This document shows positions 480 through 64,000 of a stretch of 64,000 bases of DNA, one piece after another. The DNA lies in NCBI RefSeq assembly GCF_003073045.1, contig NC_037592.1:2825371-2889370 (forward strand), given 5' to 3'. Position 1 is the first letter of the stretch, and each line of letters begins with the position of its first letter. Source of the DNA: Pomacea canaliculata (lineage: Eukaryota; Mollusca; Gastropoda; Architaenioglossa; Ampullariidae). Position numbers and translations under genes: made by a program. A model generated the notes under the pieces. The model was not told the DNA's origin. It made no database searches and was given only the letters and a program-made list of their open reading frames with translations.

Positions 480-1490
480 GCATCATGTCCTCATAGCCTC
501 TCATGGCAGACTGTCAAATGGCTTTTTAGTCAACAAAGTTGTGGTATATGACCTGCTGAGGCTTCTTGATAAATCCTCTATATTTAATTGGGGTGGGCAA
601 ATAGCGGCCCGCGGGCCGCATGCGGTTCTCTGCGGCCCGCAGAAGCCCTTTGGCAACACAAAAAAAAAAATTACCGAAAACAGAGTTCCAAAGAAGATTT
701 GTGGATTTTAAGGAGATGGAATCAAAATTCAACATATTATCATGTCCTTTTTTCTGTTCATGTTGATGATGCACCTGATGAATTACAACTTCAACTGATA
801 CACCTTCAATCAGATCATGCATTGAAGGATCGGTTTTATTCCGTCACTGGTTGAGTTTTATAAGTGCCTCTCCAACAAATCATTTCCTTGTTTAAGAGTA
901 TTTGCTGCCCAGCTATTTTCAATATTTGGTTCAAGTTACACCTGTGAGCAAACTTTTTCCTGCATAAATATAAACAAGTCAAAGAACAGGTCATTGCTTT
1001 CAGATGCAAACTTGCAGTCAGTTATGAGAGTATCTACCAGTAATTTTGAGCCAAATTTTAAAAGAATTGTTCAGCAAAATTGTATTCAAAAACATTTTTC
1101 TCATTAAATTGTGTGTGCTTAATTGTTCATTCTGGTTTTATATTTATTCCTACAGTGTTACATATTTCATGTGCTCATTATTAAATAAATGCGTTTGTTT
1201 ACAATTTGGCGATTTTACGTCGTTTTTTGTATTCAATTACAAGGTGCGGCCCTCGGACTAGTCATGACCCAGCAACGCGGCCCTCGCAACAAAAAAGTTT
1301 GCCCACCCCTGCTCTATAAGATCTGCTCAGTTGAGCTTCTATGTGGTCTGAAGCCCTCCTGTTCTTCCATTAGCTGTTCCTCTCTGGTGGCACTGTTGCG
1401 GTTCTGTACAACTTCATCGTGACTTTGCTTGGGTGGGTAAGGCTTGTGGTCCTGTAGTTCTGACACTGCACTGGACAGCAAAAAAAAAAA
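480..1490 (-). repeat. LINE reverse-transcriptase fragment, split by a hAT insertion
   Basis: Minus-strand translation of 1319-1480 gives the non-LTR RT motif EEQEGFRPHRSSTEQIL. Translation of about 490-575 gives QQVIYHNFVD followed by a decayed KKPFDS-like tail. In intact elements these motifs are about 20 residues apart in one RT domain (FRPGRSTTEQI ... YHNFIDFKKAFD). Here they are separated by the transposon at 584-1311. The copy has stops and is only a few hundred bases long, so it is dead. The same family recurs at 22.4-23.4 and 26.9-29.1 kb. The first 480 bases of the window show nothing I can name. Confidence 0.75.
584..1311 (+). mobile_element. Decayed hAT-type DNA transposon with transposase remnant
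   Basis: The left end carries GGGGTGGGCAAA (590-601) and the right end TTTGCCCACCCCTG (1298-1311), an inverted terminal repeat of the CAGGGGTGGGCAAA type. Flanks read CTCTATAT (576-583) and CTCTATAA (1312-1319), a good 8-bp target duplication as hAT elements make. A few extra bases (TTAATT) precede the left repeat. Inside, plus-strand frames around 700-1080 give SVHVDDAPDELQLQLIHLQ and, in broken frames, text like the C-terminal dimerisation region of hAT transposases related to GTF2IRD2/ZBED-type proteins. Several stops and frame breaks make it non-functional. Confidence 0.7.
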
Positions 1491-6300: not shown

Positions 6301-8374
6301 CTTGAACCATATTACTGATTGAATTAGTAGGAAAGTGCTTGCACCTTGAGTCTGTCTTGAACCATATTACTGATTGAATTAGTAGAAAAGTGCTTCCACC
6401 TTGAGGCAATCTCCGTTGGGAGAGAGGAGTGATGGAAGTGGGGAAGAAACAAGAGTATCTGGAGAAATCATTTGACAGCTAGCATTGCGAACAGGTGTCA
6501 CATAAAGTGAGCATCCCGAGAGAGATCCGAACGCAAGAACATTTTACTGATGTGGTCACAAATGAGTCTTAACTACAACACTATTTGTGCCCTATTTTTA
6601 CTAACTAAAGACTTTATCAGTTTATCAATGAAGTTTCATTCATCTTTTAATAAAATTATACAGATTTCATTAGGGAAACAGACAGATGAGTGATTAGAGC
6701 ACTGGTACTAAACAAGGTGTGCCAATTTGATACCCTTGTTGTGCAGTAAACTTCTCCCAATTGACCCAGCTGTCTGGAATAAGACTCCACAGAGTGTAGA
6801 GAAAGGTAAAGTTGAGAGAGAGGAAAAGAAAAAGATGGGCACTGCCCTCACCTCACAAAAGCTGGCTTCATGAAAAGTGTAATCTTAACATTAACTTCCA
6901 ATAACTTAAAAAAACAAAAACGGTCAGGGAATGACCTTCACTTTCAGATAGGATTCCATCTTAAAGGGTGATTAATTTAATTTTTAGTGTGAATACAGTT
7001 TCAAGGACACTGCTTATTAATTCTAAACTGTCACTGAAATTAATGAGAGGGAAAAAAGTAAAAATCATTAAATGTATATTTTACTCCAGAGCAACAAAAC
7101 ACAATGAGTAGTAATAACTGTGCACAGAATAACTTGTAAACAAAGTCTCATTAAAAGGGGTAAAATACATGATAATGGGACAAAGCAGACTGAAAGTGAT
7201 GAAAAAAGGAGTATATGACAAAAGACCCCAAATCAGCATTACTCTGAGCACTGGTTCAGCATAAAGGACTTATGATTACCATCAATTCTGTAAAGATAAA
7301 GAATGAAGAGGCAGGAAAAGCAAGCCTACAACTGGAGTTTCCTCATATCACCTTTGCCATGCTGTGAAAGAGTAAGACATTGACCTTAACAAATTTTCCG
7401 ATGCTTGTTTTTAGAAATTGTAACACAGATTGTTTTACAAATATTACCTGCGTGAGAACCGATATTCATCATACACAGGTCGTCCCCTTGGTGGAGGACC
7501 TCCAAATCCTCTACCTCTGCGTGACCTTCCAGTAGACATTTCAACTCGAACTCTGCGGCCATTGATTCGCCTGTTACAAACCACAGAAAACATCTTCCAT
7601 GATAAATGTTTTTAGATAACATATTTCCTGTTAAGAAATATGAATTTTCAAAATCATATACAATTAAAAAAATCTTAAAATTAATTCTATACTAACATTT
7701 TCAATTTTTCTGAAAGAAGCTTCTTAAATTTAATTCCTGAAAATACTCTGTAGTTCCAGTACTAGTGTCTCACCAAATCAACTTATTAATCTGATGTTTA
7801 CTGCAATATGTACTTTTAAAAATTGCTTAACATATGCACAGGTATAGTCCCCATACTCACGCATTAATGCACTTGCAAAAATATACACATGTACTAAGAT
7901 TAACAAGCACGTGACTTTCATAGCCAAATCCAAATTACCCATTTTATTGCTACTAGAAAAAAAAAAAAGATGAAAATATTGACATGGAATTAGAAACCAT
8001 TTATACTTTTCTGCATTATTGCAATATGCAAACTAAACATACAAAGTCTTTTAAATGGCTAGGGTAAACATAATACCATAATTCCTTGAAGTCTGAGTGA
8101 AAAATTCTCAAGACACCAACCCATTTGTGCTGCATGTCAGCAGTGTATCATTAAACAAAACTTACGTTCCATCCAGAGCTCGAACAGCATCTTCTGCATC
8201 ACGAGGATCATCAAACTCAACAAAAGCAAATCCAGCTGGTCTCCGGGCTACCCACACATTCTTTAGTGTACCATATTTTGAAAATTTTTCCTCAAGTTCA
8301 TGCTTCGGGCAACCATGCCCAAGTTCTCCCACATAGACTTTGCAGTCTAGATTCCAGTCTCTTGGGTGTGACAT
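3387..8374 (-). CDS. SRSF3: SRSF3-like serine/arginine-rich splicing factor
   Basis: An SR protein that binds exonic RNA and promotes splice-site choice and mRNA export in the nucleus. Three coding exons join in phase: 8374-8166, 7570-7448 and 3522-3387, giving 155 residues. Residues 9-83 form one RRM with RNP2 KVYVGEL (12-18) and RNP1 AGFAFVEF (47-54). A Gly/Arg/Pro linker follows ([12 protein letters not shown]), then an RS tail from about 109 ending SRSPTRSR. There is no CCHC zinc knuckle and no second RRM, so SRSF3 fits better than SRSF7 (human SRSF3 is 164 residues). The start is the first ATG after an acceptor at 8392, so that exon carries 17 bases of 5' UTR and an upstream non-coding exon must exist. 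The 3.9-kb second intron is unusually long beside the 0.6-kb first one. The gene is divergent from the CD225 gene. Confidence 0.93.
5600..5880. other. GC-richer island inside the long SRSF3 intron
   Basis: This patch stands out from the AT-rich intron around it. A plus-strand reading frame (5646-5876) is open and looks fairly protein-like ([20 protein letters not shown]), but I do not recognise it. In gene sense (minus) the frame continued from exon 2 meets stops. It could therefore be a PTC-bearing cassette exon of the kind SR genes use for autoregulation, or a captured fragment. Neither is shown. Confidence 0.3.
6296..6405. repeat. Two-copy tandem repeat, 55-bp unit
   Basis: TCTGTCTTGAACCATATTAC begins at 6296 and again at 6351. 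The two 55-bp copies differ at only two or three positions, so this is a recent local duplication inside the SRSF3 intron. Confidence 0.9.
6670..6900 (+). repeat. Old copy of tRNA-SINE family B
   Basis: Resembles the better copy at 57360-57600 in order and wording: GAGTGATTAGAGCACTGGTA (A-box side), a decayed B-box, then CAATTGACCCAGCTG, GGAATAAGACTCC, and GCACTGCCCTCACCTCACAAAAGCTG. Heavily diverged. Confidence 0.55.
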
Positions 8375-8999
8375 CTTGCAGACAACAAACACTGAAACAA
8401 AAGCACTGGTTACACACACTGAAGTCAATTATAAGACATAAATAAAACTTGAAAAAAGCTTAGTAAAGAAGAAGAAAATGCGAGTTTGCACATTTTCCAA
8501 AACAGACATTTGAGTAAATCAATGAAAAAAATAACTAGCCAAACAAAATCTTTTTACACATTTTTATTATCTGTTACCCTTAAACATTTAACTTTAACAA
8601 TTATAACTGCTTGTCAATTAACTGCAAGATAAAAATTGTAAATGTCAAACTTTTTACGCCAAATAAAAGGTTGTAGAGCGCGGCTGTTCATGATATTGAT
8701 AAGAATCTTTATATAACGCATGTTTTGACAAAAACCAAATGCGAAAAATCTTTCACAAATATGACACGCATAAACAAACAAAAAAAAAAAAAACGCCTAG
8801 AAGGAAGTGCACCGAACCCTCTCCCTAAAAAAAAAAAGTACAATTTGTGTAGCTTTAGTATCTTCGACAAGATGTTGGGTACTATGGCAGAAGCACAATG
8901 AAGGAACGGAATGACGCAAATATTTAGACACGTTTATCGAGCATATTGCATTCTGCAATATAACACATTACATAACTTTTATAAGGAATAAGCGTGTTT

Positions 9000-19201: not shown

Positions 19202-22200
19202 ATGGCATCCATCTTGGACCAGTATGAGGAAGAATTTACACGAACATCAACAGGAAAACCTGCTGTGCGATCTACAGCCCAAGACATAGTTAGTGATGCC
19301 TGTCATCAGTTTGGAATTTATTTTCCTTAGTGGAACAGTGGCAGTTCTTGATGCCATAGAGAATGTTTAAAATTCTTCCTTTGAAAAATATGTGATTAGA
19401 GCAGATAAAAATAAAAAAAGAAAGGCCAGTTGTTTAAAGACCTCTCATTGTCATTACATTCTTCATTTCTTTATTCTAATAACTGGGATTATGCAACATG
19501 ATGTTGATTTAAAAAAGAATATTTTGTGTGGAAACCACTCAGGTAGCCTGGCGGTCCCAAGCTCAGATGAAGGAGGAGGGTTGGGCTTGGGGCTAGCAAC
19601 CACACCCTGTAAAAAATAAAACTATGGAAACCGCAAACATATTAACCACACAATTTTATTCTTAATATGCTGATATATTTTGGCCTGTAAACTACATACA
19701 TTTTGTGTCTATTTTTTGTATATTGCTTTGTTTTATAAAGAGCACTGAACCTACTACAGTGGTGGTAAAATGTGCTATATAAATCATTATTATTATTATA
19801 TAAATATGTTGTTTCTATAATAAAATGGTAATGAAAAGAGAATCCACAAAGCTACTTTCATCAGCATGAATTGTCTTGTTATATGTTAGGGGTTACCAGG
19901 CTATGTCGATGCCAGACTGGAAGATGAGACACCAATATTTAGTAGAGTCAAACTCAACTACAAGTAAGGCATTAAATTTTTTTTTTCATCCTTTTGAAAT
20001 ATGATCTAGCACATTTAATAAATGAATAATGCCAATGGTAGACACTAGTTTGATATGTTTTATGACTGATCTAAGCTTTTACTTTGCTCAAGAAGTCATT
20101 AGTGACTCTTGATTCTTATTATAAGTTAAAAAGAATGAATTTATAGATAACAAAGTAAGCAAAGAGAATCTTATTATTTGAAGCTTCAAGGAAGGCAATG
20201 AATCATTTATCCTATAGCAGTAGAGTAATACTTGCTGTTGCTTCAGATCGCTCCACTACCTCAAGGGTTATTGATTCTGGTTAGGGACTAGTTGCTGCAT
20301 AAAAAGTGATGTTAGAGAGTCACATGTTTCTGTCAACTAATCAAATAACTAGAAAGAAGTAACAAGAGTGATCTATTTCATTTAGTCAAACAGTGGCTGA
20401 TTAAACTAAGAGTGATAGAAGGTATAGTCTTCTATTTTGGAATCATACAATTAAATGTTATTAAAAAAATAAATCCATATCCCTTAAGAGTGTTATGTTC
20501 ATGGGATTTCGTCATCTTCTTTCAACCCCAGACCTCCAGGTGCTACAATAACACATCTGTGTGCTGGAATAATATTCTGGTTCTCGCTCTTTCTACCAAC
20601 TGTTTGGTTCGTGTGGAAGTGGAAACTCAACAGGCCAGTATGTATTGAATGTTATTTTTGATAATAAATGCAAAGATTTATATCTGAAAATAATACTGAC
20701 TTTATATGTGATAAATTTTTTAATGTAAAATTATTTGCCAGTAAATTGTAAGTTTGAAATTTTCAAGATTAGACTGTTTTCTTTATAAATTCATTGCAGT
20801 TTGTTCATGCATTTTGTGTGTTGTTTGGTGCCATGTATTTGGGAATACTAAAGGTAGAGTTAAGAATCAAGCTCTATATGGCTTATTGCTGGGAATCCTT
20901 TTGTGGAAAAACAAGTCTTAGTAATTAGCAATCGCATGTGCATATATTTTAACATAGTGTAGAACATTGCATCAAATACATTTAAATGTAGAGGTACTAC
21001 ATGATAACTGTTCATACTCATATTTTTCATCATCTCTCTATCTCTATAATCATATCTCTAACTGAAAGACTCAGAGATTTGTTCTGGGGGTGGAGACTGA
21101 AGCCGAATATTTATCATATTGTGAGGGCCAAATATTTCTGTCAGATTCTTAAACCTGTATTTTTAAAAAAAAATCTTTCCCACAGCTGAAATTGAGTTGC
21201 CAAGCCCTGTAACAGACAGAGTGCATCAGATTTTTCTGGACCCCACAGGGAAGCACTTACTTATCTCTCTAGGTTCACAAGAAAATTATTATGTTTCCCT
21301 TGGGACATCAGCAAGGAAGCCCAAAAATATTGCAAAGCTTAAGGTTTGTAGCTCTAGACAGATGTACACCTTACTGTCTGTCTCTTTTTGTGTTTTTTTT
21401 TTACTTTGTAGTGTTTAGGTAATATAGATAAGAAAATTATTTATGCTCCTTATGTGTTCAGAAAAAAAGACCAAGGCAGGTAGAATGCAAATGTTTGAAA
21501 AGTACTACAAGTATTGCACAAAGTGATTTAGAACTGTTTTGGATCTTCAGAATGTATGTGAATGTGCGTGTGTGTGCACATGCACATGGATGATGCACAA
21601 GTGCATATATATGGATGGAAGTGTGCACATTTTTTCAGTTCATTTGCAAGTTTTTGTCTTTTTTTCATGTATTCACCACAAATAATTATTTTCTTGCAAT
21701 TTTTACATTTCAGTGTTTACAATTGAACACTGCAAGAGTGTGAGACTATATTTCATAATAATCAACACTCTTTTCAGGGTCATTTGATTGATTCTGTAGG
21801 ATGGAACTGGCAAAATGCTAATGAAAAAACAACTGGTGCAATCCTTTTAGGGACCAACAAAGGTAACATTATATTATCTTTCATTATTTATTTGTTTCCT
21901 TTCAAATGTTTGTAGAAACAGATAGCCTTTTCAAAACCTGCGGGAGGGGAGTGAACATTTGCCAGTTTACCCAGCTTTTGGGAATGGGTCCATAGAAGGC
22001 TGGGGAAGGTACAGCAGTACAAGAGATGGCACCACGCTCATACAAAGCTGCCTTTGAGAAAGTGCAGTTTCTGACACATTGTATAGTCTTTCATAGTATT
22101 TACAGATTTCATTTTGAACATTGCTAAGTGTCTTAAAATCAATTGTTTGCTATAAACACATAGAGAAACAGGGAGGAGGGGAGATTGGTGCTTTACATTG

Positions 22201-25200: not shown

Positions 25201-28200
25201 TGATTTATGTTCAAGTGTCAAATATTTTTCAGTATTGAGAGAATTACTTTTTGGCATCTTTCAGACGTTTGTATCAGTTTATTGGAACTGTATCAACAAG
25301 TGCAGACCCTCCCATGTTCACACCCCTTTTCCAGCAATATGAGTCTGGAGCAGGTATGATTTCGCACAAAATCCTCTCATATCTGGCGTCCTTTTGACAG
25401 AATAACATCATTAATGGCGTAGTAGTCTTTGCAACATTATGGAGGTTTTTTTGTTTTGCAGTTTTTTTAAAATAACATCTCAATAAGCATGAATAACATC
25501 AATTAATGGAAGTGTCTTATGGATGTTTTTTTTTTTTTAAGCTGGAAGTGTCTCTGTTTTGCTAGCTGGCGTTCTAGAGATTGTCACATGAAGAGGTTTT
25601 AAATTAGCTTGGAAGTTAACATCATGAAGTCTTTCAAAAGTTCTTGGATTTTTTCTAACATCTACACAGTTAGCCAACAAACTTGTCTACAGACTTTAGC
25701 ATTGAGTATTCTTACAGCCTTAGCCTAAGGGTGTTTAAAATGATATGTCCACATAACTGTAATTTTGATTGCTTCTGATGAGTTTTGAAGAGTCAACTTT
25801 TTGTGCATGCATGCACACAAAAAAGAATAAGTATGCTTAGGGTCTGACATCTATAACCATATTTTATCACTGACTGTGTTACAGATCACCCACAGTTCTT
25901 GGAACTTCCAGGAAACTTTGGTTACAGTGACTTGCACCTGTTTTTTCCAAAATTCCGACAGCCTGCCCTGACATTTGCATGGTTAACTGGTATATCTTGA
26001 CTTTACATTCATTCCATTCAGCATAGATGAGTTTATTATTTTTATGAGATTCTAACTACTGTATACTGTTTATGCCTTCTAGGTCATCATGCATTGTGTT
26101 TCTGCTGTCTCTTTCAATGATTTTTTTTTTTTTATTAATTAATGATTTATACTCATGAACTATATTGATGAGCAATAGTCAAATCTGTTAATCACTGCTT
26201 TCACAGGTCCAGGTATTTATTATGGCAACATTGATGTCACAGGCTCTGCAGGCCCTAATTCTGTCATGTCCAGCTCAAAACTTATTCCGTATCCTTTTCT
26301 AGATTTTGTTTTCAAGCATAAGAAACACGGTTTGTCTTGTGATGAGGATGGCTAGAGCTTGGTTTGTTTTTATATCCAGTTGATTGTGTTGTAATGGTTT
26401 GTGATAATTTTCAATCTTTTTTTGCAGCTTTAGTAAGATGGCTTAATGTACACATAGAGTTACTAATAAAAAATGTATGTTTTTTAATGAAAAACATTTA
26501 TTAATAACTATTTTCAAAAGTTTGCAAGATATTTTTTTCCTTATGGTAATACAGTTATCCTAAGGATATTGACGAGCAGAAAGTGCATCCCATTGGCATG
26601 GCCTTGACAGAATTCCATATGCTAGTGCTATATTCTGACAGGTGGAGATCATCTTGTGTGATGGTCTTTTTTTTTTTCCTTCTCTAAATTTTCTGTTTAT
26701 CCTGTAGCCACTCAAATCATGATTCATCCCAATACAGCACAAGTGGGCAGTCTTTGTAGAGCATTTACTGTCAGCTTAGATTTAGGACTTAATTAGGCTG
26801 CAAAAGTTCTGAGTAAGCCTTAAGAAAATGAATGGTTATCTGTCATACATACACTCTGTTCTGCCCAATCAGTCAATCATCCCTTAACTGGCATCTGAGG
26901 TTGGCGGGAGCACATGGATAGGTGTGGCAGCAGACAGGGCCTGCCGCTCTTGCTTGTATGGGGTGATAGTGAGCAGGTCCTGTACAGGACAACCAGTCTA
27001 GTCTTCAACATTCATAAGCTAGTTCTTTCTCTGGCCACTGCAGCGTCAGTTACCCTCCAAAGTGCCTTGAAGGGTAGTCTTCGACAAGGTGTTGTGCTGG
27101 GTCACATGGTCAAAGAAGACCATCTTATGTCACTTGACTGTTGAAAGTAGAAGTTCCTACTAGAGGTCCAACAAGTGTGGCAATCTTGTTTCATTGGTTC
27201 TTTGTTCTATGTATGAGATTCAGAGCAGTCTCCTCAGGCACTTGCTCTCAAATGCCTAGATTCTCCTTTCTGTTTTAGTGATCAGAGTCCACATGTCACA
27301 TCCATTAAGCAGAATTGGTGCCAGCAGGGATTTGTACAGCTTATACTTGGTAGTGAATCCTTATGTTATGGCTATGCCAGATCTTATCCAGTCTAGTCAT
27401 TGTCACTGTTGCTGTGGAGCTGCAATCCTTGGAGAGGGTGGCACCCAAGTATTTGAAGCTGCTTACCTCTTTGAGTTGTACCCCATTCATATAGATCTTT
27501 ACTTTGCTGCTGCCGTTGATCACAACTTTGTTTTTTTTCAGTGCTTCACCCTATTCCATATGCATTTGAACTGTCTGTCAGTCTGCTGGTAAGGTCTTGA
27601 AGTTCTTTGTTAGTGCCTGCTAACAGATCTATGTTGTCTGCAAATTGTAGGTTGGAAATCAGCCTTCCACCATTTGAGATGGAAGTATAGTGGTCATGGA
27701 GAGCTTTGACCATGATTTTCTCCAAGAAGATATTAAACAGTATCAGTGATAGGGGACAACCTTTACTTACACCTACTCTAGTTTGAAAGTAAGGTCTGAT
27801 TTGGTTGTTCAGCAGTATTGTACTCGTTGAGCTATTACACAGCGCTTTGATGACTTGAACGACACCTTCTTTGATGTTGAGGTTTTGCATCACATGCCAT
27901 AGCCTCAATGTGCCAGACTCTGTCAAATGCCTTTTAAAGTCAATGAAGTTTTGGTAGAGGTTCATCTCGACTGTGCTTCTACGTGTCTTCGATGAGTGAG
28001 GTCTTGGTCTGATCTGTCTTAGGGAGCGGCCTTAGTAGTATGTAGGTTTTTTACTGTCAATTATGCCATTCTATCCTCTGTGTCCTGCTATTGATTCTCA
28101 GTCCAATTCTTCCTAGCTGCCTTCATCCCATATTTGATGGCATAGTTCACTTTGGGTTTGGTAGCTGCTTTGGGTTTGCTTTTTTTTCTCTTCAGTGCCC

Positions 28201-44188: not shown

Positions 44189-45725
44189 TCAATGCTGGTT
44201 GATAAAATGTGACGTGAAACTATACTTCTCAAAAAAGGTACATTTGCATATTGCACACTTCCATGGGTTGGTACCATCATGTAGGCCCATATGCATTAGG
44301 TAGAGAGCATTCTCGAAGAAAAGAATGTCACAGTGGGCACAGTGGAATGATCGCTTGGTCTCCAAAGATTTTGACCGCATCACAGTGCTACTCATAGGCT
44401 CCATATTTGTGCCCTGATCACTCTGACTGGTAACATGAGCAGACAACTCAGATGCAAACAGGTATCGCCCCATTTTGGCAGAAGAACAACCCTTCTCTGA
44501 GTCAGGGCTTCTACCTTCATAAGAATCCAACAATATTTGTTTTCTCCCACGCTTTGATTCTGTTTCAAGTTCACAGTGCCAATGATCTGCAATCCCAGAT
44601 GATTTGGACTGCTCTCTGGTAGGCCCACTCTCAAGTTCTGAGGGTGAAGATGATGTCCTGAAAAGTGATTTGTCCTCAGTGTTTGAGGAATGGTGCAGTT
44701 TGTCTTTGAGAAGCATTTCTCGCACTGAAGGCAGTCTCTTAGAGTTGGCCACTGATTGATAATGAACATTCCTGGCCACCAGTCCCTTCTTGTGATCAGA
44801 CATTGAGATATCATCTGACAGCTCAGTATCGGAGTCCATGGAAGATAAGAAGTTGGAATCCCGCACAGACAAGGGAGGCAAACCTGGCTTTGCTACCCCT
44901 ACATCACTGCAGACCTGAGAGTAGGGGAATTTGTCTGCAAGAAATTTTCCAGCAGTTGATAGCAGGCCTGGTACAGCCCCAGTCATCTGCACAGACGTTG
45001 GCACTGGCGGAATCGAGCTGTTCACTACCTGTTGATGTCCATGCATGGATCCTGCAGCGTTGCCATGCAAAGGAGATGAGTTGGCTACATGAGGCTTGGA
45101 CTCAACAGGGCTGGTGAGACTGCTGGAGGAAGCAGAAGATGAGAAAGGATTGATGCCAGGTTTTAAGGCTAGAGAATCAACTACCAATCCATGCATGGTC
45201 TGCAGGTGCTTTTTAAGGTCTTGCTTTCTTTTGGCTGCATAGTCACAGATTTCACAGATCCAAGGCCTGGCATCTGAGTGGACTGCCTGATGGTTGACCA
45301 GACTGTTCTTGAAGGCAGTTTTGAAGTTGCATATGTGACAGGAATAGACTTTGGCTGAGTCATCCATGTTACCTGGGAACTGAAACACGAGTGGCAATTC
45401 CCCAAACTGTTCACTTTCAATTCTGTCTCCTTCTCCACTGTCTCCTTGTCCTGCCTGGAAGTATGGGTCCAACTCTTCCTGAGCAAAGGCCTCTTGTGTC
45501 CATCTGAAGATCGGTCAACAATGAGGTTCATTCCTTGCTGCTGTTCTTCCTGATTGTGGTCTATCTCATCTGCATGTGTTTTGTGGGTGGCCTCCATGGA
45601 GTCACCTTCATCCTCACTGACATAAGATTTATCGGCATACTCTTTGTTCAGATCAATGACTGTGATACTTGCAGCATCATCACTGCTTTCCTCCTGTTTT
45701 TGAATTTTTATATCTTCATCCGAAC
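44189..45725 (-). CDS. C2H2 zinc-finger protein with Ikaros/Hunchback-like C-terminal pair (main exon)
   Basis: Probable DNA-binding transcription regulator. This large last exon begins after the acceptor TTTCCAG (plus-strand 45732-45726) with an acidic stretch (SDEDIKIQKQEESSDDAASI). Two adjacent fingers lie at about 45370-45220: C-x2-C-x12-H-x3-H (YSCHICNF) and C-x2-C-x12-H-x4-H (WICEICDY). A long Ser-rich, poorly conserved middle follows, then two final fingers, FHCAHCDILFFENALYLMHM and WKCAICKC...FINQH, with the stop at 44189-44191. A C-terminal pair of this kind (LFFEN..YxxHMGxH) is typical of Ikaros and Hunchback proteins, where it mediates dimerisation. The acidic head and the finger region lie in different frames, with the break at about 45490-45525. 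At least one 5' exon is missing from this entry. Head to head with JMJD6. Confidence 0.9.
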
Positions 45726-49800: not shown

Positions 49801-52508
49801 GAGGCTCAATTTAGTAATGTAACAGGTATCTCCTGATTTAAATATTGCTTATGTATCAAAATGTTCAGGCTAGGTAGGTCTGCAAATACTGATAGATTTG
49901 TGTAAAGTGTGTATTACCAGTAACAGTTTAAGGATAAGATGTCATCTGCAGTCTTATTCTGCCCAGGAAAAGGCTACCTTTACATACCACGAAGAAAGCA
50001 TTTAAAATCATCATCTCTGTGTTCACTTCTTTCATCAGTCAAGATTTTTCTCCACAGGTGGTTTGTGATGGGCTCGGCTCGATCAGGAACAGGTATTCAT
50101 ATAGATCCATTGGGTACCAGCGCTTGGAATGCCCTAGTTAAGGGTCACAAACGGTTTGTCACTTTCAAGATTTATTGAGTGTTCTGCTTCTTTTCTTTAC
50201 TACTACTGTATTTCAAGTAATGCTATAAAGTTTTGTTTGAGGTATCCTGCATTATATTCTTATGGACTGGCTGCCATAAAGCTTCACTACAGAAGTTTCT
50301 GATATTGCTATAGAGTAAGAGAGGAATTCTAATGTACAATAATTTAACAATTTGTCTTAATGCTTAATCATTCTTCATATTAAACATCCATTTCTACACA
50401 GTTTCATTATGGTGGACATCACACGAGTGGGCTGCATTTTTTGTTACATCTTTTTCAACATTTGATCTTCAATTTTTTCATTAATTGTAACAGATGGGTT
50501 TCTAATTGTACAAACCACAATGTTACTTTACTTGAGGCCACCTAGATCACTATTTTAGCCATTTAGTTTATATCCCCTGAGTTATTTACCATCTATTTGA
50601 TTTTTTTTTTTTGGGGTCACCTGTCCAGGTGGTGTCTTTTGCCAACAAATACTCCACGAGAACTTGTGAAAGTGAAGCCAGATATGGGGGGTAAGCAGCG
50701 AGATGAGGCAATCACATGGTTTACGCATGTTTACCCATTGACACAGTTGCCAACCTGGCCTCAAGAGTACAAGCCTGTAAGTGTTCCTTTTAGATGGTTT
50801 TTCTTTTGAATATAGCTCTTATTTTCCAAAATACCCTTTTTTGTTTATTCTTTGGGTTAAAATTTCAGATGGATGATTGCAAAACTCTCAAGTGAGGACA
50901 AGTGTCTGGTTATACAAGCAGCCATTATAAACAGATTTTTTTTTTCTTAGCCATGGATAAGAATTTCTGGATGTTCTCATGGAGTCTTCATTGATTTGGA
51001 TGTCTTTTCTTCAGGGATGTAGGCATTCATCACCAACTTCCATTGTTTTTTTATGTGCCTTTGTTGTGAACTGCTTGCCTTTTTTGTTTCTACTTTATTG
51101 GATATCTTATGTTTTAAATGTAATTATGCATCAAGTTATAGCATGCTCCCATGTCAGACAACATAGAGAAGGCAAGAAATAGATGCCCTTGTTTTGCATT
51201 TATTTAAATGGGTGATCCCTCCAACTGCCACATATAGTAATAATCCACTTGCAAAAATATGTTATTTATAATAGAACTCTAATGGAATTAGTCTATCTCA
51301 TTTGTAACTCTAACACTTTTCCAGATATTCCTATGAGTTTTCAGTACAAGAAAATTTAGTGTTAGTTTCAATGGATGTAGGTAAATGGGAACACTAGAAA
51401 TTTGTTTAAGCTCAAGCTTTTGTGGGTTGAATAAATATTCCACTTTTTCAAAGGTTTGAATAATAGTCTGGATAATTTATTCTTTCAACATCATTTGCCT
51501 TAAAGTTTTGGGTTTCCTCAGCTGGAGATTCTTCAGCATCCTGGGGAAACCGTTTTTGTTCCAGGGGGTTGGTGGCATGTTGTCATCAACATGGATGACA
51601 CTATTGCTGTGACACAGAACTTTTGCAGTGTTGTGAATTTTCCCATTGTCTGGCACAAAACAGTTCGTGGGCGGCCCAAGCTTTCCCGCAAGTGGTACAA
51701 GGCTTTGAAGGTGAGGAAGTAACGTGGTGAGACTAAAGAAAGTCATCTACATTTATGTTACATCACATTTAATTGTTGATGTTTTGCTGAAAAAAAATTG
51801 TTGCTGATTATAACTATGTAACTATCTTGGGTATGTTGGTTTTATTTCTAAATAGAAATTACGACCAGAGGTAGCCACCATGGCAGACAAGGTTGATCTG
51901 CAGAAACCCACAGGCTTTAATTCAGACAGCTCCAGTTCTGCTTCATCATCTTCTTCCTCATCTTCATCTTCTGACGATAGTGCAGACTCAGAACCTGATT
52001 CAGAGTCAGAAAGCAACAGCAAACGGTTTGTTTGAAACTTAAGATAATGTAGGGGTTTGAGTAACCATGATCATTTCTCCTAAAGTCTCGCCAAAGATTG
52101 GAGACTTTTAGTCTGTATAATCTGTCATCAGAAGAACATGCAAGATTTTAAGTAGATTTTGATGGTTTATGATTTAATTAAAAGACCTTCCACAAGATTA
52201 TGTGGTGGGTTTTATGGTTTAATAGTGGCTTTCTCATAAAACTTGTTTCAATTTTGCTTTTGATCTGAGCATTCTTTTTGAGACACACAATTTAGTGAAA
52301 GGGTTCTTCCTTCTTTTTTATTTTTAGACGCAAGGTGACACGCTCTCGTTCCCTCACTCCCAATGGCAGCAATGCACGTGACTCTCCACGAAGGCATAGT
52401 GGACGTGAGCACTCCCGCTCACACCCAAAATCGACCCATTTGCACGAGTCTGAAAGAAGTGACAGAGGAGACCGCAGTGTCTCTAGCACTCCCAAGAACT
52501 CCAGATGA
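46848..52508 (+). CDS. JMJD6: JMJD6 Jumonji-C dioxygenase
   Basis: A nuclear Fe(II)/2-oxoglutarate oxygenase that hydroxylates lysines in splicing factors; arginine demethylation is debated. Nine exons join in perfect phase to 434 residues (human 403): 46848-46902, 48627-48838, 49051-49203, 49538-49638, 50058-50153, 50629-50776, 51522-51710, 51856-52025, 52328-52508. The start [18 protein letters not shown] matches the basic N-terminus of the family. The JmjC core has the iron ligands H188 and D190 ([15 protein letters not shown]) and H274 (GGWWHVV), and the 2OG-binding K205. After the fold come [20 protein letters not shown], a poly-Ser/acidic stretch (51921-52015), and an RS-like tail rich in RSRS, SPRR and HSR. 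All key residues are present, so it should be active. AATAAA at 54042 is one possible polyadenylation signal. Confidence 0.98.
48295..48391. repeat. Short tandem repeat, about four 25-28-bp copies
   Basis: CTGATATAAAGCTTACTAAT with small changes repeats four times in JMJD6 intron 1. Confidence 0.85.
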
Positions 52509-56851: not shown

Positions 56852-59800
56852 CTAACAGTTGTTAGTTACTGCCATGTTCAGAAGAATGTGAGCTGCCATT
56901 TCTTCAGCTTCTTTTCTTTTCAAGCTGGTTTCCTGCACAAATGATAAATATACTGTCTGAAGCAGCAAAAAGATTAGAGGCTAGGTCTACAACAATGTAC
57001 TAGCTCATATTTTATGATCAAAATGTCATGTCTGACTCATTTTAGTGAACCCTCCTATGGATCCCTAGCTTTATGTACCATTAAAAATTTTATAAAAAGG
57101 TTCTAAAAGTAGTGTAAGATTATTTTTAGAATAGTCTTAAAATTTGTTTTCAAAGTTTGGCTACATATTGGTACTATCAACAGTGCAGCACAGAAGAGGA
57201 AGCTCCCATGAAAAAGTGAAAGGAAATTTTTTTATATGAAGAAAAGGACAGAACTGAATGGACTGTTCATTAGCCAAACTGAAGACTAGCATTTATACAG
57301 TGGGTATGAATACTACAGAGTATAAACAACATGATTTCAACATAACTCTACCACCTGCCAGCTTAGGGGAAGCAGATAGCTGAGGGGTTAGAGTGCCGAC
57401 ATCTGAACTGAGAGCACGCTGGTTCAATCCCCAATTAACGTAGCAAACTCTCCCCAGTTAACCCAGCTGGGGGGAATGGGTACCTGACTCCTTAGAGGGT
57501 TGGGGAAGATAAAGCAGCGAGGGAGAATAAGCACCGCCCTCATGTAAAGCTGTCCCCGAGAAAAGTGAGGTCTCAACACACCTAGATAATTTAGGAGTGA
57601 TTCTTTTTTTGTTTCTATTTTTACTTTTTTAGAACAGTTTATAGATTTACAACTATACAACTGGCCCTTGTCCCATGTGATTAGAACAGTGGTTCTCAAA
57701 GTGTGGGCCGCACACCTAAGTCAGGTGGTCTGTGACCGACAGTCATGTCACCAAAGTGATGTTTAAATCACTAAATAAGCTAATTAGACCATTACTGATT
57801 TCACAAAGTTTTAATTTTATTGGTGCCCAACTGCTCGTTTGTATAAAATGCTTGCTTACTAACTAAGTCTTTATGTCAATATGTGAGCATTGCATCATTT
57901 AGCCGCATCATCCATTACCCTTAGAAATGCAATGCACTTCCTTATTTTTAATTATGTGTACTTTGGGAAGTATTTAATTTTGTGTAAACTTATTACTATA
58001 CTAATGTCACAAAAGTACATTTAGTTTTGAATTGTAATGAAACATATGCGGCAATTTAAAGTTGAAATTCATGGTCCCGAATGATTTTAAGCCTTGGTAG
58101 TCCGCGTATTTTTCACTTTAGTAGGGTGGTCCGTATTTCAAAATACTGAGAACCACTGGACTAGAGGACTTACAGTACAAGAGCATATACAGTAGAATGA
58201 ACAGTTACCAGTCGATTCAACCATTTAATGAGAACCACTGGCCTCAGTTGAACTGACCACTGGTCTCAGTCTATTTGACCATTGAGTACACAAGTTACTA
58301 TTTAGTGTAATGATGCAGTTGTTCAAAACATTTTTCCCAATACAAATTAGTAATGTGATATAACGTGTCGCCATTGTTATCAAATGCAAAATGGATGTTG
58401 TTCAAGGTAAAATAGGGCATGGATACCTATGTTTCAGCAAGGAAAGAAATTACATTTTCTGCTTGATTTAATTTATGCAAAAGCAATCGACAGGACAGCT
58501 CATGGCCATATATTTTGTGGATCAGAAGTTTGTGTACCAAGTATCAGCAAAAAACATCACTACAGATAGAGGTAAATTTAGGTATATTAGCTAATGTGAA
58601 ATCCACAAATAGGTCCTAATGGTACCTTATTCCCTAAATGACCTGAAAAAGAGCAGGGGATGACCTTTTTCTTACGCTGCATTTACTTCTGTAGGGAATC
58701 TCAAGAGACCTGAACTAGAATGCTTGTAAGCATATGAGAACTAGCTTTTCAAAAAATTTCATCCCAGCAGAGGTTAAAGCAAACTCCTTGTTCTGATCAG
58801 TACTATAATCCTGTTTGCCCCGGTGTCCACACATCAATTTTAATCCTTCCCAGCTTTCTTTATATTAAGCTCTAGAAAATTCTCCTTGATGTTTTGTTTA
58901 TACTTCTCCCTTCCCTCCTTAATGGAAACTTGTGCCGTGGTAGAACTGGCAAATGGTCAAAGCGACCTGTCCCTAAATGAGCAATATTACAGTCTTCCTC
59001 TTTCAACAAGCCACATGTACAGATAAACCAGGCTTCACTATCAGTTGATGTCAGAGCAATGATGTCAAATGAAATACAAACATAAACAATCTTCAAAGAC
59101 TAAACATAAGTACTACACCTGTAACTGAATGGCTGGTAAAGTCCCCATATGATCTGATGCAATGACTTCCAAGCCAGAAGTACTAAGCTTGCCTTTGCTA
59201 CATAGAAAGAAAACTACAAAAGCTGATGTCTGAATTACTGATCGAGAACATGCAAATTAACTAATCTTTTGTATAAATGTTTTTCAATCCATGTAAATTA
59301 CTGTATGTATTAATGTCTTCAGATTTCTCAATTTCTAGTTGGAAAATGGTAGAATGAGACATATTCAACATTATATAAATTACTGCTGTCATTATTGCCT
59401 GGCAATGTTGCAGAGTAATACAGCAAACAAACAAAAATCCAAATGATCACTGAATTGCAAATTTCTGTACCTGAATGTAGAAACCAAAGGCAGAACCGTC
59501 CACGAAGCCTGTAGTTCTGGTAAAGGCAGGAAGGTGTTATCCCGACCAATGTACGGTGATTCTATGTCGCCTGCGCTCTCTGCCATATCAAAGACAGCCT
59601 TTTGTTGTAACTGCTGTGAAGATCTACCATCAAAGTATGGCTGTTCTTGAGAAGAATCTGTGCTTGCTTGCAATAGTGGACTAAACAAAGGTTCTGGGCT
59701 TGAAATAGGAGGGCTGGTGATATTCACAGTTGCAGATGAAACAGCTGTTGAGTGGGGTGACCCAAAGCATGGCTTTGTTGGTTCTGGCATCTCCTGACTT

Positions 59801-62800
59801 TTGGGCTCTCTCCCCACTTCTGATTCTTTGTGAAAAGATGTTGAAAAAAACAAATAAAAGGATTCCCACATTCACAAAACAGAACCATTTCCAGCAGTGT
59901 ACATCAAAGTGTTCACTTCATCTAATCATTGACTTTATGTTTGGCTATTTTTTGCTGCTGTACAGGAAGGGGAATCTTTCCCAGAGAAAGGCATAAGCAG
60001 CCCTTAAATTGGCACCTTTCTCAACTATCTAATATTGAGCTATGCTAATTATAATTAATGCAAATGTAAATAGCAATACCTGCTTACGCAAAAAATTGCG
60101 TACAGTACGCATTAAAATTCTTCAATTTTCGTCAATGGGGTCCCCTTCAAATTTGGGCAAAGAATAGGGACCCCTTAAAAATCTGAAGAAGGGGTCCCTG
60201 GGACCCCAAAGAATTTAGCCTTAGCAGAAGCCCTGCAATACCTGTATTTGCTTACCTAAAGGCTGGATTAGTGGCTTTGATGGTTGTGGCTCAACACAAA
60301 CTGTTGATAAATAATGCTTTATTATGAAACGATAGAAATGTTCCTTTCATATTAGGCAGAATGTGAAAGAAACAGAAAATTATATAGGTAAGATAATTAC
60401 ACATGGGGAGGACAATTATACACGTGGTAGATAATTACATATGGGAAAGAATGCTTTCTAGAAAAATCAAGGGGGGTTGGGGGGAGAAGAATCATGGTGC
60501 CCCATAAACTTGCACAATCTTCTGCTTTAAAACCCATATCAACCTTCACAATGTAAAAACATACTTAAAGGATTTGGAAGAATAATGTGTGAAGACTGAG
60601 GCATTCCAGTAAAATGACATGAGAACCGCGATGCTTCTGGCATTGAGGAGGTGATGGACATCATCTGCCTTTCTGCTTCCTGTGAGACCATTGTTTGACA
60701 ATTAGGGTCATTCCTTAAATAGTTTGCTGCATTGGAGATGGGGACATGTCCCCAGTTTCCCCAAACTGTGCTTTGCTGCCATGGAATGAAATGATGAGGC
60801 ATCTGAAGGTCATGTGGACAAGGCAGACTGAAGGAGGATGGAAGCATTGCGTTCTTAAAAGGTCTTGCAGTGCCACAAGGGGCAGACCATAATGTGACAG
60901 TCTCAAAGAATGGCTGTGCATCATTTCTGGTGACTGCAGTAGTGTGGGCAACATTGTCTCTATTAGACATAATAAGATGATCATTGGGAAAATCTCTGGT
61001 GGTGAATGAATGCTCTCCTGAGCTTTCTGCTTGAACAAACGGCTGGTGCATTAAGAGCAGTCCTTGCAGGCCAGACGGTCGGGAAGCAGTTTTTGCAGGC
61101 TGCCATATATCACTGATGGAAGATGTCATGGTTGGGACTGGATCACTCAAAGAGGCTTTGTCAACAAGTGGATGAACTGCCGCGCTGTCTGCTTCAATCA
61201 GTTGCTGGGAGATTTGTCCAAGTCCCTGCAATAAGTCTTGTCTTGAAATACATTAGCAGATAGACGTTTTCAAGTCCTGTAGACATAAGCTTTCAAAAAG
61301 ATTCCACCTCTGGTTGATGAAGGGAAAGAATTAATGCCATAATAATTTCTTAAGTTAATAAGGGTTTCTTTTCTTAGTTTATTTGTTCCTTGTACACTAA
61401 TTTGCAACATGAACACTTTGTAAAAGTGTGAAATATCAAATCTATAAGCAATAGTTTGTTTCTTATGGATGTGAGTGCAAATCTCAATGAATGTGCTTAA
61501 AAGAAAAGAAAATGAATCATGGAAATACCTTTTACATATCAGTATGAGAGCACAGCCATAAAACTGCACCCTTACCACACAATGAACCTTGAGCTTCATG
61601 TAGCCATGTTAGAACAAAGGGGAGGATAGTGATCAAAAGAAAAACATCATAATGATATAATATACTGTCCATACAACATTTCTTTCCTGTCCCTCATGCT
61701 GCATTTGCAATGCTACCTCATATCCTGATGCTTGTGCTGGATTTCTAGAATTTGCTTCTCCATCAGACGTTGGATCTTTTGTGTTTTCATCATATGGACA
61801 TTGTAGCCCACCTATCGTGCTTCTTGGTACCTGCTGTTGTCCCTTCTTTTGCTTTGTTCGGCGCCGAGCATTCGAAAACCAGTTTCGAATCTGTAAATCT
61901 GTCAACCCAGTCTTCTGCGCTATCTCCCCCCGCACTCTGAGAGATGGATATGGTGCCAACACATGGTCCTGAAACCATGTTGAGAGAAGTGACCTGACTT
62001 TCTGGTCTAGAGATCTGGAAGGACGTCGTCCATCTGGGCAAATGCTGATTGGTGGTGGGTTTCTAGAAGACAAAATAGTAAAAACCATGTTCTTACAATA
62101 CACTCCAAAAAGAGTGTAAATTAAACCTTTTGTTTGCTGTCCTGCATAATGTTCAAAGAAAAAGTATTTACTGTTTCTAAAAAGTATTTAAAGTATTTAC
62201 TGTTTACTGAACGCCAGGAATTTACACACGACAGAATTGTCATGTCTTATGCTTACACACACTCTCTCAATCATTATCTCTAACCAAACCTAGCAGAAAG
62301 TTCATGAAAGGCTAAACCTTTTCCTGATGCGAAATCTCAGAACTGATGTTAGTGGTTTGTCAGCATGTTGCTTCTTCCAAATGAAGTAATGAGCTTCATC
62401 CCATATGTCTACCAAGTCTTTTCCTTGTGAGAATCTGCCAGACTGGAAAAGATTCAGCCACATATTCAATGTATAAAATGTATTTTGGTCTAACTCCCAG
62501 CTATTGCACTTAAAATATTCTCCACCTATAGAAGTGATGGGGTCATTTTTTTTCGATTTACCCAGTGTGGGCAGAAGTGACAGTTCACCGGTTTCACTCA
62601 ATGGCCTACGTAAGGAAGACGAGGTAAGGGCCCGGGTCATAAGCCACGTGGCTTTGCCAGGGAAGTACGGGGATAACGATTTTCATTACTTCTATTGCAA
62701 AGTTCAAGCTTTCTCCTTTCCAATAATGTAGAGGTTTCTTGGTCTAATGTTTATCTGAGAGCAGCAATAATAATAAAACACCTTCACTATCGTCTTCAGT

Positions 62801-64000
62801 TATTAGCCAGTCTTTGTAACACTTACACTTTTATGTCATGCTCAGAGGATTAAGGAAGGGTTATCAAAAACCTTTTGTCTATTTCTTTTTGTTTGCTGTA
62901 ATGGCAAGTTTAAGTTTAAGAGAATCTCACAGCTGCTGCAGCTGGAACGATACAATAGTGGTCATTTAATGCCGGGGGAGTGTAGACTGGGTTGGAGGTC
63001 AAGAAGCAGAATAACAATTTCACGGGATCGTCGGGATGCAAGATATATTCAAAGACCAAGAAACTGTGTCGTGTGCTAGTGGTGTACATGTAGTCGGCTA
63101 GAGCAGTGGTTCTCAAAGTATTTCGGACCACTTTACTTAAGTAAAAAATATGGCGGACCACCAAGGCCTAAAAATCACTCTGTACTATGAATTTCAAATT
63201 TAAATTGCCGCATTTGTTTCATTACAATTCAAAACTAAATGTCCTTCTGTGACAGTAGTATATAGTAATAAGTTGACATAAAACTACCTCGTTCTTTCTA
63301 ATTAAAATGTTGATGCGAGGAATGCATCACTTTAAACATCACTTTGCTGACATATGACGACTGTCAGCCGCGGACCACCTGACTTATGCTCACGGACCAC
63401 TAGTGGTCCGCGGACCACACTTTAAGAACCACAGGCCTAGAGCGCAGTCACGGAGGTGTGTGTGTAGGGAGAAGAGGGCTGTTTTTTTTTTTTTTAAGCA
63501 ATCTGTTAGGGAAAAATATCATTTTCATAGAAGACATTTGCAGAGAACCTTCACTCTGCTGGTGGGATGACTTCACCACGCAAGTCGTTTACTATCCATT
63601 TATTTTTAAAATTGGAATAATTATATATGTTTAGACTTAACTTTTTTAACAGAAATTTTAAACAATGAATCTAGGTTTAAATATTACCAGTAATGATTGC
63701 CGCGATCTGTGTAATTGTGACAAAAAGACCACAATTAGACTGTAAGGACCCGTACGTGAAATTAAAAGTTTTGCAAAACGCTAATTATAACACCTTTGCA
63801 TCCGTCGTAAATCATAACTTTTGCAATTATTCAACATACCCTTATGAGGTCACACACGTCTTCATAACGTTCTTGTCGGTGTCGCAGGTGGATCATCACT
63901 CGGCGAAAAGTCTCGTCCTCAAGAAAGGCGTTCTGGACATCTTCCGGTAAGGACGACACAAAGTTCTCCAAAGCGTCGTAGCGTTTTGTCTTCAACAGAA
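56852..64000 (-). CDS. Homeobox protein: SIX-type domain plus TALE-length homeodomain (5' end off window)
   Basis: Likely DNA-binding transcription factor, possibly related to anomalous homeobox (ANHX). Exons, high to low: 64000-63840 (partial), 62442-62318, 62062-about 61666, 61225-60565, 60300-60256, 59825-59471, 56924-56852; phases match throughout. The first two encode a SIX-like domain (ALENFVSSLPEDV, DIWDEAHYFIWKKQ, PLTSVLRFRIRKR). The third encodes the homeodomain: RSLLSTWFQDHVLAPYPS then GLTDLQIRNWFSNARRR. The spacing between helix-1 Trp and PYPS is seven residues, as in TALE proteins (MEIS/PBX), whereas SIX proteins have four. Helix 3 has Ser50, Asn51 and Ala52. The rest is Ser/Pro/Gln-rich and ends MAAHILLNMAVTNNC. 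The homeodomain-exon donor (ACA|GTATAT at 61665) is the least certain junction. Confidence 0.86.
57360..57600 (+). repeat. tRNA-derived SINE, family B, best copy
   Basis: A-box-like TAGCTGAGGGGTTAGAGTGC (about 57376) and a good B-box GGTTCAATCCC (57421). Then CCAGTTAACCCAGCTGG, GGAATGGGTACCTGACTCC, a GGGAAGATAAAGCAGC stretch, and ACCGCCCTCATGTAAAGCTG. Lies in the last intron of the homeobox gene. Older copies at 6.7 and 22.0 kb. Confidence 0.8.
57687..58158. mobile_element. hAT-type MITE, 472 bp
   Basis: Begins CAGTGGTTCTCAAAGTGTGG and ends with its inverted form ATACTGAGAACCACTG. Flanks GATTAGAA (57679-57686) and GACTAGAG (58159-58166) match at 6 of 8 bases, a worn 8-bp target duplication with the nnCTAGAn core hAT elements favour. 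No transposase frame. Confidence 0.82.
60130..60212. repeat. Cluster of GGGGTCCC/GGGACCCC inverted repeats
   Basis: TGGGGTCCCC (60136), AGGGACCCCTT (60167) and AAGGGGTCCCTGGGACCCC (60189) fall within 80 bases. The last is a near-perfect palindrome, and the whole block could fold on itself. In an intron of the homeobox gene. Origin unknown. Confidence 0.7.
63104..63434. mobile_element. hAT-type MITE, 331 bp, opposite orientation to the copy at 57.7 kb
   Basis: Starts CAGTGGTTCTCAAAGTATTT and ends CACTTTAAGAACCACAG. Flanks GGCTAGAG (63096-63103) and GCCTAGAG (63435-63442) match at 7 of 8. Interior text near 63175-63370 (ATTGCCGCATTTGTTTCATT, AAACATCACTTTGCTGACAT) is the reverse complement of the interior of the 57687-58158 copy. 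In the intron between the two SIX-domain exons. Confidence 0.85.

What the first reader, a model, noticed from the sequence alone, without database searches (positions are those of the whole stretch)
61666..64000. One protein with a SIX-type domain and a TALE-length homeodomain
The exons at 63840-64000 and 62318-62442 read as a SIX domain (DIWDEAHYFIWKKQ ... PLTSVLRFRIRKR). The next exon, joined in phase, holds a homeodomain with the three extra residues between helix 1 and PYPS that define the TALE class and a TALE-like NWFxNARRR third helix. Known SIX proteins have the shorter loop and NWFKNRRQR. Seen directly: the spacing and residues. Inferred: a divergent family bridging the two classes, possibly related to vertebrate ANHX.
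Basis: partly seen in the sequence, partly recalled or inferred. Interest (0 to 1): 0.72.

Follow-up and report, generated by a model that had tools for sequence, protein, structure and literature searches.

The report
Snail SIX-domain gene with TALE-length homeodomain
A snail gene appears to encode one gene-regulating protein that joins a SIX-family domain to a DNA-binding homeodomain of the length typical of another family (TALE), and it is probably a relative of the little-studied vertebrate gene ANHX.

Summary
On the minus strand an intact seven-exon open model runs from an ATG at 64127 (127 bases beyond the window) to a stop at 59113, 596 or 634 aa. It has a SIX domain (Pfam SIX1_SD 58.5 bits, cut-off 27.4) and a homeodomain. 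The homeodomain lies in one exon and reads WFQDH-VLA-PYPS: three residues more than the genome's three ordinary SIX genes, exactly TALE length. Residue 50 is S, neither SINE (K) nor TALE (I/A/G). The best solved-structure match is SIX1, in one alignment through SIX domain, linker and homeodomain.

Closest family: vertebrate ANHX, listed in the SIX class in one paper. Homeodomain trees cannot decide SINE versus TALE. Best reading: an ANHX-like lineage related to the SINE class whose homeodomain has TALE loop length and TALE-like recognition residues. Eight searches of the held library showed no description of this combination. No transcript evidence was available.

The parts
63840..64000 (-). 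Exon 1, part inside the window: N-terminal part of the SIX domain; exon continues on the contig to the ATG at 64127
   Evidence: open frame, in-frame stops before the ATG, donor GTATGT
62318..62442 (-). Exon 2: C-terminal part of the SIX domain (DIWDEAHYFIWKKQ...PLTSVLRFRIRKR)
   Evidence: in phase, AG/GT borders; SIX1_SD residues 38-142 of the product
61831..62062 (-). Exon 3: linker NPPPISICPDG and whole homeodomain with three extra loop residues (VLA) and S50; a second in-phase donor would end it at 61717
   Evidence: Homeobox_KN 52.1 bits, profile 1-40
60565..61225 (-). Exon 4: C-terminal region, no Pfam domain above cut-off
   Evidence: open 661 nt; 0.155% of random segments of that length open
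60256..60300 (-). Exon 5 (45 nt), inferred from phase and splice signals only
   Evidence: 42.7% of random segments of that length open, so weak
59471..59825 (-). Exon 6: C-terminal region
59113..59197 (-). Exon 7: C-terminus and stop codon

Best explanation
One intact gene for an ANHX-like transcription factor, a divergent lineage related to the SINE class, in a gastropod (Pomacea canaliculata). Shown: SIX domain, linker and homeodomain in one in-phase exon chain; TALE loop length; no K50. Inferred: as in SIX1, the SIX domain lies beside the homeodomain and offers a protein-binding face (EYA- or Groucho-type partners), and the C-terminal region regulates. Inferred: with N51, R53, R54, R55 as in Meis and no K50, the homeodomain reads a TALE-like core (TGAC/ACA type) and not the SIX TGATAC-type site, so a SIX-type partner module is brought to TALE-type sites.
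For: SIX1_SD 58.5 bits and homeodomain matches above cut-off in one 596-aa product. SIX1 (4egc) is the best of 139 PDB sequences at 5e-16, in one alignment over query residues 36-168, that is SIX domain, linker and homeodomain. ANHX listed in the SIX class (PMC5928047 table, passage). Linker RKRNPPPISICPDG agrees with recalled ANHX at 11 of 14 positions and with snail Six1/2 at 6 of 14 (alignment). SIX-domain+homeodomain tree of five rows: window+recalled ANHX apart from the three snail SIX genes, 99/97. Exon chain open and in phase, GT-AG introns.
Against: Overall identity does not separate the candidates: 52/174 to recalled ANHX, 50/172 Six1/2, 51/174 Six3/6, 45/172 Six4/5. Both long rows, window and ANHX, are the pair joined in the five-row tree. 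Recalled ANHX has one extra loop residue and A50, not three and S50. The homeodomain tree from the same genome leans to TALE, 71/79. No transcript, no orthologue from another species, no binding data.
Confidence: 0.68

Rival explanations
1. A snail- or mollusc-specific duplicate of an ordinary SIX gene that diverged fast and gained the three loop residues by itself; not an ANHX orthologue.
For: SIX1_SD and SIX1 matches; overall identity to snail Six1/2 and Six3/6 equals that to recalled ANHX; ANHX evidence rests on a recalled sequence.
Against: Linker agrees with recalled ANHX and not with SIX; the three snail SIX genes group together apart from it, 99/97; it is on another contig (C3) than Six1/2, Six3/6 (C8) and Six4/5 (C4).
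Confidence: 0.18
2. A TALE homeobox gene that took up a SIX-domain exon by shuffling; mollusc genomes have many divergent TALE genes.
For: Homeodomain leans to TALE at 71/79 in the native panel, TALE-like NARRR and loop; an intron lies just between SIX domain and linker/homeodomain; PMC5322547 reports 14 extra TALE genes in oyster (table).
Against: Similarity to SIX1 runs across that intron through the linker; the linker resembles recalled ANHX; S50 is not TALE.
Confidence: 0.09
3. Artefact: two neighbouring genes or a pseudogene read as one protein.
For: No RNA evidence; intron 1 (1,397 nt) holds what by eye is an interspersed repeat.
Against: All exons open and in phase with GT-AG borders; exons 3, 4 and 6 are open beyond chance; domain order is that of SIX proteins.
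Confidence: 0.05

Closest known systems
ANHX, anomalous homeobox (vertebrate; in the SIX class in PMC5928047 table 1)
   Same: SIX domain followed by a homeodomain without K50; linker RKRNPPPxSxCPxG (from a recalled human sequence)
   Different: Recalled human ANHX has one extra loop residue and A50; the snail protein has three and S50, and is longer (596/634 versus 379 aa)
SINE class (Six1/2, Six3/6, Six4/5)
   Same: SIX domain N-terminal to a homeodomain; alignment to SIX1 through the linker
   Different: Three extra loop residues, S50 instead of K50, NARRR instead of NRRQR, linker differs, introns in and after the SIX domain where the three snail SIX genes are uninterrupted there
TALE class (Meis, Pbx, Tgif, Irx, Mkx, Pknox)
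   Same: Three extra residues between helices 1 and 2; NWFxNARRR
   Different: SIX domain in place of TALE companion domains (no other Pfam domain above cut-off); S50 where TALE has I/A/G

Membership tests
SINE class | SIX domain N-terminal to the homeodomain (PMC2211742 passage) | tested here: met
   SIX1_SD 58.5 bits, residues 38-142, homeodomain after it
SINE class | Typical homeodomain length | tested here: not met
   Three extra residues in the loop, in one exon
SINE class | K at homeodomain position 50 | tested here: not met
   S50 (NWFSN)
SINE class | Homeodomain groups with SIX homeodomains | tested here: inconclusive
   59/69 with SINE+recalled ANHX; not with SINE in the native tree, p-AU 0.162
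TALE class | Three extra residues between helices 1 and 2 | tested here: met
   VLA before PYPS, same length as Exd, Meis and other TALE rows
TALE class | I, A or G at position 50 | tested here: not met
   S50
TALE class | Homeodomain groups with TALE homeodomains | tested here: inconclusive
   71/79 in the native tree; p-AU 0.43 in the recalled panel
ANHX | SIX domain with a divergent homeodomain and the ANHX linker | tested here: inconclusive
   11 of 14 linker positions agree with a human sequence recalled from memory; no verified record reachable
ANHX | Orthology in a tree with ANHX of several species | not tested
   No such sequences in the collections searched; five-row tree only

The most novel reading that the evidence does not exclude
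ANHX-like genes are an ancient fourth SIX-domain family, older than the protostome-deuterostome split, whose ancestor had a TALE-length, non-K50 homeodomain; the snail protein keeps that state, so it either records how SINE and TALE homeodomains parted or shows a lineage that brings SIX partners to TALE sites.
Probability: 0.2. Interest if true: 0.72.

Novelty: new variant of a known kind. Interest (0 to 1): 0.43.

Why it matters
SINE and TALE are kept as separate homeobox classes, told apart partly by loop length and residue 50. One protein with the companion domain of one and the loop length of the other shows that loop length alone does not define a class. If orthology to ANHX holds, a vertebrate gene named for being anomalous gains a protostome relative, bilaterians would have had four and not three SIX-domain families, and the gene is a natural test of how homeodomain specificity changes while the partner domain stays.

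Tried and rejected
Relatives were sought in viral contigs with 168 aa of the window protein (9 pattern matches, none a relative) and in genome contigs with window+recalled ANHX (38 pattern matches, none a relative), hoping for stray animal DNA. The homeodomain exon folded alone gave a low-confidence three-helix model (mean pLDDT 61.8, pTM 0.28), so I ran no fold search. Homeodomain trees were built twice and lean opposite ways; I treat them as undecided; the bootstrap had not settled and the three snail SIX rows were not one clade. A search of the own genome with the whole protein for paralogues did not complete. The SIX1_SD search of the genome gave 3 matches, the ordinary SIX genes, and did not list this gene, whose SIX domain is split by an intron; the Homeobox_KN search gave 24 matches with this gene sixth by score. 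I looked at 24 loci by eye and saw no second copy, which is no full test. Literature: eight searches listed no paper whose title or abstract start describes a SIX domain with a TALE-length homeodomain or an invertebrate ANHX; of the papers I saw passages of nine only (PMC5094009, PMC5928047, PMC2211742, PMC5322547, PMC6118893, PMC2959044, PMC1779571, PMC7566022, PMC8848322), no whole text, no supplement; subscription papers and database records (RefSeq, HomeoDB, HGNC) were not seen. Mollusc surveys seen as passages name three SINE genes: oyster (PMC5322547) and Biomphalaria straminea (PMC8848322).

Full report
What is there. On the minus strand the window ends inside a gene. Reading on into the same contig gives an ATG at window coordinate 64127 with in-frame stops before it, and a chain of seven open exons to a stop at 59113: 63840-64127, 62318-62442, 61831-62062 (or 61717-62062), 60565-61225, 60256-60300, 59471-59825, 59113-59197. 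The joins keep the frame, the six introns are GT-AG, exons have 41-50% GC and introns 30-39%. Of 20,000 random segments of the same lengths from window 1-59000, 10.3, 1.85, 0.155, 42.7 and 0.485% are open in a fixed frame for exons 2 to 6: exons 3, 4 and 6 stand out, exons 2 and 5 alone do not. The product has 596 or 634 aa, by the donor of exon 3. The start codon is the first ATG after a stop in exon 1; an upstream exon cannot be excluded.

Domains. In the 596-aa product Pfam finds SIX1_SD (58.5 bits, cut-off 27.4, residues 38-142), Homeobox_KN (52.1, cut-off 24, residues 167-206) and Homeodomain (35, cut-off 22.9), and nothing else above a cut-off. The 172-aa part read from the window alone gives 57, 54.5 and 37.8 bits. 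With that part, phmmer lists 139 PDB sequences at E up to 1 (60 shown): human SIX1 (4egc) is first at 5e-16, in one alignment over query residues 36-168; Extradenticle and Meis2 follow at about 1e-10.

Loop and residue 50. The homeodomain is in one exon. Between helix 1 and PYPS it has three residues more than Six1/2, Six4/5 and Six3/6 of the same genome (L001, L002, L003) and as many as Exd, Meis and the other TALE rows. Position 50 is S. Passages of PMC5322547 give K50 for SINE and I/A/G for TALE; passages of PMC2211742 describe SINE by a SIX domain with a typical homeodomain and TALE by the three extra residues. So the protein has one defining feature of each class and fits the position-50 rule of neither. 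By the evidence rule I file it as a formal member of neither, while its SIX domain and linker relate it to SINE. Homeobox_KN is no TALE test by itself: the three snail SIX homeodomains score 45.5-53.8 bits on it, from profile position 7 or 8.

Which genome. G000 has 440,159,624 bases in 24 contigs. PMC7566022 lists Pomacea canaliculata GCF_003073045.1 with exactly these numbers (passage). Six1/2 and Six3/6 lie on C8, Six4/5 on C4 and this gene on C3. In the Homeobox_KN search of the genome it is sixth of 24 matches; other matches read by eye as Irx, Mkx, Pbx, Tgif-like, Pknox, SIX and more distant homeodomains.

Which family. PMC5928047 table 1 lists ANHX under the SIX class (passage); PMC5094009 records the naming of LOC647589 as ANHX, anomalous homeobox (passage). 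No ANHX record was reachable. I compared with the human sequence as I recall it (379 letters), written down after reading the window and unverified. It shows 46 of 126 identities at 80.1 bits; the 129-residue SIX1 segment shows 42 of 123 at 71.6 bits. The recalled ANHX itself is above cut-off on SIX1_SD (35.2), Homeobox_KN (36.5) and Homeodomain (35). The linker after the SIX domain is RKRNPPPISICPDG here, RKRNPPPPSLCPEG in recalled ANHX and RRKFPLPRTIW-DG in snail Six1/2: 11 of 14 positions against 6 of 14, counted from that alignment. Against this reading: whole-alignment identities do not separate the candidates (52/174 ANHX, 50/172 Six1/2, 51/174 Six3/6, 45/172 Six4/5), and recalled ANHX has one extra loop residue and A50.

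Trees. A panel of 20 homeodomains (14 recalled, loop columns left out) puts the window protein with SINE+ANHX at 59/69; grouping with TALE is not rejected, p-AU 0.43. Fifteen rows from the snail genome (five partial) put it with TALE at 71/79; grouping with SINE is not rejected, p-AU 0.162; there the bootstrap had not settled and the three SIX rows were not one clade. A five-row tree of SIX domain, linker and homeodomain sets window+recalled ANHX apart from the three snail SIX genes at 99/97, but these two are the long rows. Homeodomain columns alone cannot place it. PMC2211742 itself notes artefactual mixing of TALE and SINE in such trees (passage).

How it may work (inference, not tested). 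Both SIX domain and homeodomain are needed for DNA binding in SIX proteins (PMC2211742 passage), and in SIX1 the SIX domain binds EYA (recalled). A valine in the first SIX-domain helix that the three snail SIX genes share is kept (alignment); that it is the EYA-contact valine of SIX1 is recalled. With N51, R53, R54 and R55 as in Meis and without K50, I expect a TALE-type core site. I therefore expect a regulator that carries SIX-type partners to TALE-type sites.

Novelty. Eight full-text searches listed no paper that, by title or abstract start, describes a SIX domain with a TALE-length homeodomain, and ANHX together with homeobox is in seven papers. A database model for this snail gene may well exist. 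I rate it a new variant of a known kind.

Noticed in passing
L014/L018/L021 (G000:C11:17173058-17173511): Three tandem, nearly identical partial Pbx homeodomain stretches about 180 bases apart, each reading RRKRRNF..NPYPSEE..KEELARKCGI and ending before helix 3: possible alternative exons, or an assembly effect.
   Followed up: no
L010 (G000:C8:25167766-25167885): A divergent TALE-length homeodomain in a 457-aa open frame, helix 3 SWFANKRNR; perhaps one of the extra molluscan TALE genes.
   Followed up: no
window 63100-63410 and 58000-58170: By eye, similar repeat-like DNA (TGGTCCGCGGACCAC type) lies in intron 1 and, in the other orientation, downstream of the gene.
   Followed up: no
window 44192-45514: 441-aa open frame on the minus strand with C2H2 zinc fingers (zf-C2H2 28.4 bits; weak similarity to ZNF462 fingers).
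   Followed up: partly
window 8165-8428, 21167-21415, 51504-51719: Exons of other genes: an RNA recognition motif protein, a Vps18 beta-propeller and a JmjC domain.
   Followed up: partly
window 826-1104 and 27546-28028: Fragments of mobile elements: a hAT dimerisation region and a reverse transcriptase stretch, the latter below the Pfam cut-off.
   Followed up: partly
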